Source: Callaeas wilsoni (Eukaryota > Chordata > Aves > Passeriformes > Callaeidae). From it: a stretch of 64,000 bases of DNA. Below the pieces are notes generated by a model. That model was not told where the DNA came from. It did not search any database and saw only the letters and a list, made by a program, of their open reading frames with translations. Position 1 is the stretch's first letter, and each line of letters starts with the position of its first letter. The position numbers were made by a program, and so were the translations under genes. Positions 9,901 to 16,320 of this stretch are shown one piece after another. The stretch covers positions 145,589 through 209,588 of the forward strand of contig VWPU01008487.1 of the NCBI GenBank assembly GCA_013398955.1, given 5' to 3'.

Positions 9901-12900
9901 GCAGGCTTACAAACAATTCATGTCTGAGCCCAAAAACTGATGGCTCAAAATCAGGACACCTTTCAGACCTAGTCTGAAAACAGTCACCAGATATTATCTT
10001 TACTCCAAATCACACTTATATTTCTGCAACGGCTTACTCAGGTTCTCTGATTAGGACTGGGGCTAGTGACTAAACTGGTTTTCAGATGCGTACTTTGCAT
10101 GAGACACCCAATATAAACCCACATAATGTACACTATGTGTGAGCTGGTTCCCACTGCAGCCAGCATTGCTCAGATATTGCATGAAGAGCATTACAGAGGG
10201 TTCTCTCTGCAAGTTAAAAATCAAGGGTAGGAGAGGAAGAGATCGGATCTATCCTTTCTCTGCTAAAATGAAGGAGAACACACTCAGTCAGTCTCTCCCT
10301 GACATGCAGAGGCACAGGGCACCATGAGCACCAGCACCTCATTCACATGATACTGGGATTGTGGATGATAAGGATGCAGCAGATGTTCACACCAGTCTGC
10401 ACCAGTGCAAACCCCCAGGACTGTGGTTCATGCTCTTGTGTGATAATGTTGCTAGTATTTTGCATTTCAGACCTTTCCATATTGAAACATAGTGCTTTGT
10501 GCCCACTCTCTCCTAGGTGCAAACCACCACCATGTGCATCTCTGTGAGTCTGAGTGGCTTTGTTGTGCTGGGCTGCTTGTTTGCGCCCAAGGTGCACATC
10601 ATCCTTTTCCAGCCCCAGAAGAACGTGGTCACTCACAGGCTCCACCTCAACAGGTTCAGTGTCAGTGGGACCGGGACCACTTACTCCCAGTGTAAGTAAC
10701 GAGACTGCCACCTTTCTGTGGGTTCGTGGTGAGTTTGAAAAAGACTAGGTGGGCTGAACTATGTACCCCTGTGAAAGCATCTTTTCCTTTGTGCCTGGAG
10801 AGGAAAACTCATCCCCCTCCCACGGGAATCAGCTCAGAGCCTGCTCTGAAGCTCACTGAAGTCAGCAGAAAGTTTTTGGCCGGCTCTGACTCCAGCCTGT
10901 AGCACACACCAAACACACCCTGTGTCTCAGTGTCACTCTGGCAGTGTGACAGGAACAGATTGCCTTGGAGTGTTCCTGTCAGAGCACACGCTGACAGGAT
11001 CGGGGCCTCCACGCAGCCTGCTCTCAATGGCTCATCACCTGCATTATAAGGAAAGGCTCCAAGTCTGCAGAAAATGCATCCGAGGGATGCCATAAACTGC
11101 ATCTGTACGTGTAGCACGATCAATACCCTTTGTCAGTGCCACAGCCTGGAGATGCAATCAGTGTTCTGTTGCAAGGACAACTCATTTGCTCTGATTCCCT
11201 TCTTTCCTTCATCTTCACTCTCTTCATCACAAGCAGGTTCACAGCTGTGATTTTGTTTTGAGGCTGTCACTCCTTTTCTGGATGAGTTGCTGAGAGAGTT
11301 TTATGCATTACAAAAAAAAAATTGGCCACCTGTATATTTGTTTAGGTTTTTTTTCTTTGTCTTGCTTAACCAACTTAATTCATTAAAGATGGGAGCACAC
11401 GGCACCTCATTCACAGAGTTCTCTGAACAGCATGTCCACTCTGGAAACCTGATTGAAAAGCACACTATGGCTATAAAGAGGAAGAGAATAAGAAACAGAG
11501 GAAAGGGAGGACACAGAGCAAGGCTTTTCTAGCAAGTTCACAATAACCTAGCCTGAGGTTTTTGAGTGTCACTTAAATTTCAAAATTGTCTCAAAAGCTT
11601 TGGCACTTCAGATTTCAGACGGAGCATGGAAGTAACTTGGCACCCAGCTATGTATCACATTAGCAGGGATTAGGAATTGAAGGAATCCCAGCCATGCCTG
11701 GCTCTCCCATCCCAAAACACACTGTGCAATAATGCCCAGGGTCCCCCAAACAGAGATCAGCCATGTGGCTCTATATGTCCCCAGTCTCATCAGAGTCAGG
11801 ACTGCATCCAGTAGAGCAAACACTCCTTGCTATTTTGGAAAATTTAATGAGAAGGCCCTATGTGCCTGAAGTGCTGAACACTCCCAGAAGACCAATTGAT
11901 TCCCAAAATCTCTTAGACATTTGGTCCCTTGATGAAATGGTAAGTTCCATGAGATTCGTTTCATTCCTTATGAATTTTGTGTAAGTGGTTTTTCCAAGTT
12001 TTTTAATACTCTCATGCTATGGAATTATCTTAGCCAGAAACCATTTTGATTCATAAATACTTTGTACTGGATTCTGGATTGCATTTTGGAATTTGCTACT
12101 TCTGTTTTAATGGCTGGATAACGTGTGTGTGTCTGTGTGTGTGTGTGTGTGTGTGTGTCTGTGTGTGTGTAAGCATGCATGAAACTGAGAGACATTCTCA
12201 GTGCACATCTTCACATTAAAACCTACATTTGCAGCCTTGTGAACAGCTTGAGGACATTAAGGAAAGCATAAAAATCCAGACTTACAATCTATAACTACTT
12301 CATTGTTTGGAAAGGTTGCTGCAGTTATTTACTTTTACTGCTTACACCTAATTGAATTAGGGCTGCTTGCCTTGTTGGGCTTTTTGGAGCATGGAAAGAC
12401 ATGGAAGTAGGGCTAAAAAGTACATCACACACAAAGGAAACAGCCCTATAGTTTCCATCTAGGACAATTATTTGGGAAAATAACACTGTCTATCACGGTG
12501 ACAATATTTTCAAGATGAAAAATCTTCCCTTACTCTCTTCCATTAATTTTTAAATTATTATAAATAAATTTCCATTATTTTTCTTAACCATTTAGTCATT
12601 TATAAAACTCCAAAAAGGTTGTCATCCAAATTGGTGCTAATCTTGGTCTAAAATATTCCTTTCATCACTCCTGGGGCTGTCAGCTTGTTTTTATTTTGGT
12701 CTTGATAGCATTTTCATCATTCAGAAACTTCTTAATATCAGACATTAAAATTAGCTCTAGGGCATTCTAGTAACGTTGAAAAGCCAGTTCTTATAGATTG
12801 TCAGAGCTCTAGAGGTCAGGAGCAGCCACGTTGCTCAAACAGGCAGTGTTTTTCCTATCTCCACGGATTCCCACCTCCAGTGCATCTCAGGGTTGCCACC

Positions 12901-15900
12901 ACCTCTTCGCTCCATTGATCATGAATGCCATGAGCATAGTGGCTCTTGAACAGCAAGTGACACACAGACAGTTTTAAACACAGCTCCCTGAACCATGAAA
13001 ACTCGTCAAACACTGTGAGAAAAGGTGACACTCATGATGCTTTTGGGTAGTCTAAGTGTTAGTGTTGAGCTTTGATCATTCTGATAGCTGAAGTCTGGAC
13101 TAAAAAAAGAATATAGATTTAAGCCAAATAGAGGCAGCTTAAGAGTGTGCTTCAGTATATGACATGTTTTGAGATGTATATATCTGTACACATTGTTTTG
13201 ATTCTGAAAATTCCCATTTGGCAGCGTGCTGCATAAGTTCTGCTGCCCAAGCAGTGTCTCTCCCATTGGGATGTTCCCGTTTTCCTCTTTTATGGGCTTC
13301 AGCATCCATAAAACTTCACAGAGAACTCACCTTCATGATTTCATAAGCACCTTCATGATTCAGACTAAGCTTTTATACCCAGATGTGATTTATTCAAGTT
13401 ACGTCCACATGGAGAGCTGCACACAGAGTTGAGCTCCTCCAGTGGCCTGCACAGGGGTCAGAAGGAGAAATGAACCCATTGTTTATAGCCAGACTGGCAA
13501 TTTTTTTCCTCTGAATTTATTTTCCCAGGTCTTGTTCCAAACTATCCCTGATACAATGGAGATCAACTCACAGTTGTCCAGGTGTGAGCATGGGTAGAGG
13601 AGACAATGCTCTCAGGCCCATGGTGTGATTCCTGTGCACAGCCAGGATTTGGACTCAATGCTCCTTGTGGGTCCCTTCCAAGACAGGCTATTCTATGACT
13701 CTGCGTGGCACACAGACAGCAAATTCAGATCTGCCTGTTCTCGGCTGTGTAGGCAAAGCTGCAAGGTCACCACAGCAGTGCTGGGCTCTTGCACTGTACC
13801 TCTGGTTCTTTACCTTGGATTATCTAAGCAAAATGAGGGACAGCCAGGAAGAGGGAGATCAAAAGCATGAACTCGAGCCAAATCACAACTTCTGCTGATG
13901 TCACACTTTTGTCCTTGGTCTCAACACAAAATGAAGGTGAAGTGTCTCTTGCATATCCAGCAGTATTCCAGGAAACCCCTTGGCAGCTGCTCTAAGACAC
14001 GGAGTGTAGCTCAGAACCCTGCAGGGCCAGTGATTAACACTGCTGAGGTTTGTAATGAAAAGCAAGGTCTTTTGTTCTGTCTCAGGAGAGCTGGATGCTT
14101 GGTGTGAACACTTTACTCCACCCAGCAGAGTTAATAACTGCATCCCAGCACTACAAGAGAAGTACGTGCTGTGCAGGAAGCCTGGAAACTTAAAAGGCAA
14201 GGCCACTCATTTCTCACCTACCACCATATATTTCTGTCCAATTTTGATATTCTCCTGACCCAGTTACCATAGTATTTGAGCTATTCATGCTTGTCAGTGT
14301 GTTGGACTTCAAAAAAAAAGCCTGAAGCTAAAAAAATTCTGGGTAAGTGACTGATGTTCATGGAAACAAAATGCTTTTGCCTGTAGCCATACTGCAGAAG
14401 AACAGGGATTTGAATCAGGTTTCCTGAGAAGAACTGATTTTTCTATTTTCTAACAAAAAGTAGAAATAGAAATAACAACAATAATAAAAATTCGGGTCAT
14501 TGTGCTGCCATGTTATACCCAGTTAACAACAGAATACAAAACCAGAATAGAAAATACAAGTTAATTTTTGCAAATCAGAGACATGATGCCCTGTGGTCTT
14601 TTACATACAACAACTGCTCCACACCTGTGACTCACAACACACATCAGTGTCATGAGAGATCAAACTCCACCGACCTAATCGAGAAGAGGGGCTCATTCTT
14701 GGGTCTCCTGTTTATCAGGAAGATGTCCTGCCCTCTGAGTAGTAGGCTAGTCCAGTAGATGCCTCTAAATTTCTTTTGTTAAAGCAATTCTGTTTTCCAT
14801 GAAATATTTATGCAGTCAATGAAAGAATGAAAAATACCAGCTGATTTGAAGAAAGAATAGTATTTTCTAAAAATTATTCTAAGCATCTTTACAGAACCAG
14901 TGTGCAACTGAGAGTGCAGCCAGCACCAGATGTGGAAGATTGAGCATGCCCTTGTCAGCTGCATAAATTGCTTTTTACACTGGATGATTGTGTTTACTAA
15001 GTTACTGCTTGCCATGTGTTTTCTTTGATGAAGGCATCACATTTCTCTGGGTCACTGTTACCATTAACCAAATGTATTTTTGAAAAAGCAGCTTTATGGT
15101 GCCCTGAGCAGAGATGTCACAGAATATCTGAAAACACGTTCCTGATGCCCAATGGATAATTTTAACAAAGATGGACAAACCAGTTTACTTTTAAATTAAA
15201 ATCCACACGACTTAAGAAGAATATAGTAATATATTTTATGCTCAAAATACAAATATATTTGGAAACAGATTGTTATACTCAGATTCAACTGTCACCTAAT
15301 ACCACTAAAGCAACGAAAAACTGATGTATAAAATGTTATACCATGTAAACAAGTTTATCAGAATCTGGTCCTCACCTCTGGATGCATACTGAATCCTGAT
15401 CCAGAGCTCCTAGACATGAAGCATATTATAGGCAGAAATTATTCTGGGATTAGGTGAGAAATAATCTTGCTTTTAAATTCTTATTAAAAAATTTCTTCAC
15501 TTGACCCAATATGTTCTTAGAATTCTTATTTTTATTAATTGAAAGGTTATTGACACAGAATTCTAATATGATAGATTATCTCCTGGATTTAAAACTACAT
15601 GTATTTTCTTCATGAACGTCCACTCTAACTATGTGAAAGCTCAAAGGATCAGACCTTAGCATTTCTTGCCGATAAAACACAAAAACTCCAAAGGTTCACT
15701 TTTTTTACCGAGGTATTTTAGCACCATTCTAGCTGTATTAATTCACACTACCATGCAAAGTGCTACAAAGCGAGACCCAGTGGCACAGAATCATCAAAAA
15801 AAAAAAGAAAAAAAAAAAGAAGTATTTTATTCCGACACTTCTTGGAGAAGCGTAATCACCCTCCAAGCTCCCAGTGGTCAGCGAAGTGAAATCAGATTTC

Positions 15901-16189: not shown

Positions 16190-16320
16190 TTGTGGCTCGT
16201 GGTTCAGTTCTTGAGTTTTTAGACTGTTAGGCAAAATTTTGCACATGTTGTGCACTCCAGAGAACACCAGAAAACAAAAGACATCCAAGCAAAATTAGTA
16301 CCTTTTTTTAGAAACAGTGT

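What the first reader, a model, noticed from the sequence alone, without database searches (positions are those of the whole stretch)
10517..16230. GRM3 last two exons are open in a second frame, giving exactly a 96-residue alternative C-terminus if the TM exon is skipped
Seen: the transmembrane exon 5929-6995 is 1,067 nt, so skipping it shifts the frame. The upstream exon must end with one G (Ala codon split G/CT). Joining that G to 10517-10691 and then to 16116 onward gives an uninterrupted frame starting GANHHHVHLCESEW, crossing the junction as LLPV-ICQYV and ending LEFLDC at TAG 16228-16230. I count 96 codons, the last 13 plus the stop beyond the normal stop. Known: human brain expresses GRM3-delta-4, lacking this exon, and I recall its novel C-terminus as 96 residues. 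Identical length in a bird would mean that frame and stop survived about 300 million years. Inference: a soluble ligand-binding isoform may be made in birds. Caveat: overlap with a conserved frame restrains the second frame too.
Basis: partly seen in the sequence, partly recalled or inferred. Interest (0 to 1): 0.75.

Follow-up and report, generated by a model that had tools for sequence, protein, structure and literature searches.

The report
Bird GRM3 exon-skipping frame, 96 codons
The last two exons of this bird's glutamate-receptor gene GRM3 can be read in a second frame as long as the new tail of a known human splice variant, but the frame may well be a passive by-product of the normal protein code, and nothing here shows that birds make the variant.

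Summary
Exon 5929-6995 is 1,067 nt, exon 3 (upstream of the window) ends in the required G, and the joined second frame is 96 codons to TAG 16228-16230. Human GRM3-delta-4 also has a new 96-residue tail (PMC5714154), and the normal tail aligns without gaps to solved mGlu3 chains, so the two alternative stops should coincide.

With the normal protein fixed, such a frame is open in 8-11% of simulated sequences with GRM3 or tail codon usage and in 4% with uniform usage. Antisense ORFs of 14 other records reveal third bases of exon 10517-10691: the frame is open in 13 and has a TAG in one. Fewer stops than neutral expectation, but not significantly so: site test p 0.63, event test 0.26, tree simulation 0.12-0.30. 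The last exon's frame and stop persist in both records found, but that search could find only open frames.

"Soluble ligand-binding" is contradicted by human-cell data. Best reading: a homologous, probably passively kept frame. If birds skip the exon, the product would be a truncated, probably non-binding receptor fragment.

The parts
5929..6995 (+). GRM3 exon 4: end of the ligand-binding domain, cysteine-rich domain and 7TM; 1,067 nt, so skipping it shifts the frame
10517..10691 (+). GRM3 exon 5 (175 nt): normal frame VQTTTMC...TYSQ; after skipping, alternative frame G|GT GCA AAC (GANHHH...HLLP)
16116..16189 (+). GRM3 last exon, coding part in the normal frame, stop TGA 16187-16189; also open in the alternative frame and in the third frame
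16190..16230 (+). Alternative-frame extension past the normal stop (13 codons counting the one that straddles it) and its stop TAG 16228-16230; it is 3' UTR in the normal mRNA
10663..10665 (+). Place equivalent to the inferred alternative-frame TAG of record P0016 (alternative codon 50); this bird reads GTC AGT at 10661-10666 and has no stop

Best explanation
The second frame is real and, by its length and stop position, homologous to the tail of human GRM3-delta-4, and is most likely kept passively. The normal C-terminus is almost invariant and uses mostly G/C-ending codons. In this relative frame a stop arises only when a codon ends in T before AA, AG or GA, so the frame stays open fairly often; its stop lies in a proximal 3' UTR that seems conserved for whatever reason. 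If the exon is skipped in birds (not shown), the stop falls in the last exon, so the mRNA should escape nonsense-mediated decay (established rule, not tested). The 535-aa product would keep the N-terminus and most of the ligand-binding domain, but lose about 65 residues of that domain, the cysteine-rich domain and all transmembrane helices. By analogy with human it would be a non-binding fragment that associates with and reduces full-length mGlu3, with a tail whose exact sequence matters little. Shown: frame, length, stop position, drift of the alternative residues. Inferred: passive retention, escape from decay, mode of action.
For: Chance of an open frame given the normal protein is 4-11%, and a longer open run (145 codons) exists in the same relative frame of the 7TM exon. 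Of 14 decoded records, 1 (P0016) has an in-frame TAG, and each shows 2-12 alternative-residue differences over 46-49 decidable codons, while the antisense residues are compatible with an unchanged normal protein at 58 of 58 codons in 13 records and 57 of 58 in P0015. Stop-creating C-to-T changes: 1 of 6 critical sites against 7 of 21 other sites (Fisher p 0.63); 11 inferred T/non-T changes at such sites, 1 of them critical (binomial P 0.26). A neutral simulation along the records' tree gives 1 or fewer records with a stop in 12-30% of runs. The alternative tail matches no Pfam family. PMC5714154 reports no ligand binding, membrane location, co-precipitation and lower mGlu3 in co-transfected cells; endogenous protein in human brain is uncertain.
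Against: The stop coincides with the human one: under a uniform mutation model, if bird and mammal third bases differ by 30-40%, keeping 96 codons has probability 0.9-2.9% with a freely evolving UTR or 4-10% with a frozen UTR. Treating the 14 records as independent descendants of the window's sequence, 7.6-8.2 should have a stop in exon 5, against 1 seen. The tree version, which allows for relatedness, expects 3.4-4.4. The 13 codons past the normal stop are unchanged in both relatives found (0 of 13 twice), against 19 of 86 and 14 of 32 changed intron codons. T at critical sites is rarer than elsewhere (1 of 112 cells against 17 of 405; p 0.14). All these tests are weak: few sites, related and unnamed sequences.
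Confidence: 0.62

Rival explanations
1. The delta-4 isoform is an ancient, selected product: birds and mammals both make it, and the tail sequence or length is maintained because the truncated protein modulates mGlu3.
For: Same 96-codon length and, by inference, same stop as human. Open in 13 of 14 other records in exon 5, fewer stops than neutral means of 3.4-4.4. Both last-exon records keep the frame and stop, though the search could find only open ones. Low simulated retention at high divergence. PMC5714154 notes a similar variant in several other mammals from a UniProt search.
Against: TAG in one record; scarcity of stops not significant; alternative residues change freely. PMC5145804 says wild-type mice do not express it, and its variant-selective antibody failed to find the protein in human brain. 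No avian transcript evidence.
Confidence: 0.21
2. Selection acts on the RNA, not the second protein: the exons and proximal 3' UTR are constrained by splicing or stability elements, and the open frame rides along.
For: The 13 codons past the stop are unchanged in two relatives while intron codons change. From recall only, mammalian GRM3 3' UTR stays alignable beyond the alternative stop.
Against: No Rfam match in the window at the gathering threshold. UTR DNA beyond 16230 was not compared with another species here.
Confidence: 0.14
3. A soluble, ligand-binding decoy receptor is secreted in birds.
For: The skipped form keeps residues 1-439 with most of the ANF_receptor domain and lacks the 7tm_3 domain; the tail's best 19-residue hydropathy is only 1.23.
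Against: Solved ligand-binding constructs match the query to residues 502-506 (3sm9, 4xar), so about 63-67 residues of that domain are missing. The human form bound no [3H]LY341495 and was membrane-associated (PMC5714154).
Confidence: 0.03

Closest known systems
Human GRM3-delta-4 / mGlu3-delta-4 (Sartorius et al. 2006, as cited in PMC5714154 and PMC5145804)
   Same: Same exon removed, same kind of frame shift, 96-residue new tail, stop in the last exon at what should be the same codon distance past the normal stop, equivalent N-terminal part (439 bird, 441 human).
   Different: No transcript or protein shown in a bird; the tail sequences could not be compared because the human letters were not available from a tool.
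Truncated GPCR splice variants such as dopamine D3nf (named in PMC5714154)
   Same: A truncated variant with which the full receptor interacts and which keeps it from the plasma membrane.
   Different: mGlu3-delta-4 loses all seven helices and part of the ligand-binding domain; PMC5714154 calls many other such isoforms less extremely truncated.

Membership tests
GRM3-delta-4 isoform (bird orthologue) | Skipping the 7TM exon shifts the frame | tested here: met
   1,067 nt; upstream exon ends in G; exon 4 ends on a codon boundary
GRM3-delta-4 isoform (bird orthologue) | New 96-residue C-terminus ending in the last exon | tested here: met
   96 codons to TAG 16228-16230; human 96 per PMC5714154
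GRM3-delta-4 isoform (bird orthologue) | Keeps about 441 N-terminal residues, loses the cysteine-rich domain and 7TM | tested here: met
   439 residues kept; NCD3G and 7tm_3 matches vanish in the 535-aa form
GRM3-delta-4 isoform (bird orthologue) | Exon 4-skipping mRNA exists | not testable with these tools
   No avian RNA reads at hand. One antisense record (P0017) that appears spliced shows the normal exon 4-exon 5 junction.
GRM3-delta-4 isoform (bird orthologue) | Tail sequence resembles the human tail | not tested
   PMC5714154 says the human tail is printed in Sartorius et al. 2006, which is not held
Overlapping reading frame under selection | Frame kept open across species more than codon constraint predicts | tested here: inconclusive
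   13 of 14 open, 1 stop; site test p 0.63, event test 0.26, tree simulation P 0.12-0.30; a star-like simulation expects 7.6-8.2 stops
Overlapping reading frame under selection | Constraint where only the second frame codes (16190-16230) | tested here: inconclusive
   0 of 13 codons changed in P0001 and in P0002; UTR constraint not separable, and both were found through this frame
Soluble ligand-binding receptor | Complete ligand-binding domain | tested here: not met
   Ends at residue 439 against 502-506 in solved ligand-binding constructs

The most novel reading that the evidence does not exclude
GRM3 carries a dual-coded C-terminus inherited from the amniote ancestor: exon-4 skipping in birds and mammals makes a truncated mGlu3 with a homologous 96-residue tail that regulates the full receptor, and the 41 nt past the normal stop are coding only for it.
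Probability: 0.17. Interest if true: 0.7.

Novelty: new member of a known kind. Interest (0 to 1): 0.33.

Why it matters
GRM3 is a schizophrenia-associated gene, and whether its delta-4 variant is functional or splicing noise is unsettled (PMC5714154, PMC5145804). A frame and stop that appear shared between bird and human, with at least one record that breaks the frame, turn that question into a comparative test. It would matter if bird brains made the isoform; as it stands, the open frame alone is weak evidence.

Tried and rejected
Chance alone for the identical stop: not favoured, because stops at the same codon in human and bird are more simply shared by descent; the open question is why they were kept.

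Soluble ligand-binding isoform: rejected on the human-cell data and the missing part of the domain.

A transmembrane anchor in the tail: best 19-residue hydropathy 1.23, no clear segment. Nonsense-mediated decay of the skipped mRNA: not expected, since the stop is in the last exon; even P0016's stop would lie 26 nt before the exon end if its exon ends alike.

Comparison with the paralogue GRM2 in the same genome: not done. The contig with its probable exons 2 and 3 (C11802, named by resemblance only) ends shortly after exon 3, and the family search for the 7TM domain did not complete. Scans of viral contigs and bacterial/archaeal genome contigs for GRM3 gave no relative. A second protein search with the 43-aa last-exon profile gave only P0002 again. 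A promoter/terminator scan and a Pfam scan of ten other ORFs gave nothing. The simulation starts every record from the window's sequence, which exaggerates C-to-T change; I added the tree version and report both.

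Full report
WHAT IS THERE. The window holds the last three coding exons of GRM3 on the + strand. Exon 4 is 5929-6995 (1,067 nt), exon 5 is 10517-10691 (175 nt), and the last exon starts at 16116 with the normal stop at 16187-16189. Exons 2 and 3 lie upstream on the same contig and were fetched. 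The full receptor is 877 aa and the skipped form 535 aa, of which 439 are ordinary and 96 new. The 96-codon count, the start GANHHH, the junction and the TAG at 16228-16230 are all as stated.

SAME STOP AS HUMAN. PMC5714154 (parts 1 and 3 of 5 and search passages read) says that human GRM3-delta-4 keeps 441 residues and has a novel 96-residue C-terminus, citing Sartorius et al. 2006, which is not held. Two distinct mGlu3 sequences in the Protein Data Bank (9ii2, 879 residues; 8tqb, a 921-residue chain) align to bird residues 1-877 as their residues 3-879 without a gap, with the normal tails ending together (the listing names the molecule, not the species). Bird 439 and human 441 are therefore the same exon boundary. 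Equal normal tail lengths plus equal 96-residue alternative tails place the human alternative stop at the homologous codon, unless indels compensate. The human DNA itself was not seen.

IS AN OPEN FRAME SURPRISING? In this relative frame a codon is the third base of one normal codon plus the first two of the next, so a stop needs T before AA, AG or GA. The tail has 13 places where a synonymous T-ending codon would make one. Drawing synonymous codons at random keeps the frame open in 8.4% (GRM3 usage), 10.7% (tail usage) or 3.9% (uniform) of 40,000 draws each. In the real coding sequence 68 of 796 82-codon windows in this frame are open; the run lengths put 64 of them in one 145-codon run in the 7TM exon and 4 in the finding's own 85-codon run. 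The other forward shifted frame has 0 of 796; the three antisense frames have 254 of 797, 25 of 796 and 0 of 796. The 13 codons past the stop would be open by composition with probability 0.36.

LAST EXON IN OTHER RECORDS. A protein search with the tail found two records, P0001 and P0002, that read through the preceding intron into the last exon in the alternative frame and end at the same stop. The query was the alternative frame itself, so records with an early stop could hardly have been found. Overlap codons changed: 1 of 24 and 3 of 24. Each of the four is most simply a third-base change that is silent in the normal frame (reasoned by hand from the codons). Codons at or past the normal stop changed: 0 of 13 in both. 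Intron codons changed: 19 of 86 and 14 of 32 (the P0002 intron alignment has a gap and is partly doubtful). So 16190-16230 looks constrained in a small, biased sample, and this cannot separate coding from UTR constraint.

DECODING EXON 5. The antisense ORF over exon 5 is in exact codon register with the normal frame, so its residues reveal the normal codons' third bases, given the normal residue. A search with it, which does not depend on the alternative frame, gave 17 records, P0003-P0019. I used 14 (P0003-P0016). I set aside P0017 (covers 40 codons, and its first residue is an initiator Met, so its call at codon 40 is unreliable) and P0018 and P0019 (5 of 56 and 1 of 36 normal residues differ; possibly paralogues). 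The records bear no organism, are taken as GRM3 by sequence only, and two of the 14 (P0007, P0011) are identical in every decoded third base. The antisense residues are compatible with the normal residue at 58 of 58 codons in 13 records and 57 of 58 in P0015; alternative residues, decoded on that assumption, differ at 2-12 of 46-49 decidable positions. Thirteen are open. P0016 has GTT AGT, that is TAG at alternative codon 50, provided Ser50 is kept. Of the three set aside, P0017 and P0018 show no stop where decidable, and P0019 has one undecidable position. P0016 is one record with one member sequence and the furthest of the 14 from the window. The collection is biased towards sequences like this bird's.

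STOP AVOIDANCE. At sites where the window has C and T would be silent, T is seen at 1 of 6 stop-critical sites and 7 of 21 others (Fisher p 0.63). Parsimony on a rough third-base tree gives 1 and 10 changes at these sites (binomial P 0.26). Cell counts over all sites where the window has no T are 1 of 112 and 17 of 405 (p 0.14, which ignores relatedness). Simulating silent change from the window to each record's own divergence, as if independent, expects 7.6 (uniform bases) or 8.2 (tail composition) of 14 with a stop; this treats the window as ancestor and ignores relatedness. Simulating along the records' neighbour-joining tree from their majority sequence, and keeping only runs in which the window stays open, expects 3.4-4.4, and 1 or fewer in 12-30% of runs under four settings. 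The direction suits retention of the frame throughout; the tests that allow for relatedness are not significant. At third-base differences of 0.30 and 0.40, P(same 96) is 2.9% and 0.9% with a neutral UTR and 10.4% and 4.4% with a frozen UTR; the real bird-human third-base difference was not measured here.

FUNCTION. The skipped form loses the NCD3G and 7tm_3 domains and truncates the ligand-binding domain. Two mGlu3 ligand-binding constructs in the Protein Data Bank match the query up to residues 502 and 506 (3sm9, 4xar). The tail matches no Pfam family and has no clear transmembrane stretch. In transfected human cells the variant was translated, concentrated in membranes, co-precipitated with mGlu3, bound no [3H]LY341495 and lowered mGlu3 abundance (PMC5714154). 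PMC5145804 (passages) could not find the protein in human brain with a variant-selective antibody and states that wild-type mice do not express the variant. PMC9669598 (passages) says no GRM2 splicing was observed and that the delta-4 protein occurs in human brain; PMC5714154 calls that uncertain. PMC12455821 (passages) reports ten novel human GRM3 isoforms; the passages seen name exon-2 skipping and novel exons for GRM3, and the paper's one mention of 'exon 4' concerns another gene. Its supplements were not seen. Paper searches on this variant listed no avian study of it; the one that included 'chicken' returned no paper.

VERDICT. The functional inference is not established. I favour passive retention of a homologous frame, with any product being a truncated modulator rather than a soluble receptor, but a selected isoform is not excluded.

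Noticed in passing
window 6446-6880 (+): A 144-codon ORF in a second frame inside the 7TM exon, longer than the reported one and in the same relative frame; a useful control for how easily such frames stay open.
   Followed up: partly
window 10343-10744 (-): A 133-aa open antisense frame over exon 5 in exact codon register with the normal frame; relatives are called as proteins in public data (17 records) and expose silent-site variation.
   Followed up: yes
window 29632-29996: GA-rich array, 3.2 copies of a 113-bp unit at 100% matches.
   Followed up: no
window 18033-18107: Fifteen copies of ATTCT at 100% matches.
   Followed up: no
L024 about 2206-2541: ORF resembling a non-LTR reverse transcriptase remnant (CR1-like, from recall) near GRM3 exon 2.
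   Followed up: no
[quoted passage not shown] the title of the cited 2008 paper says increased.
   Followed up: no
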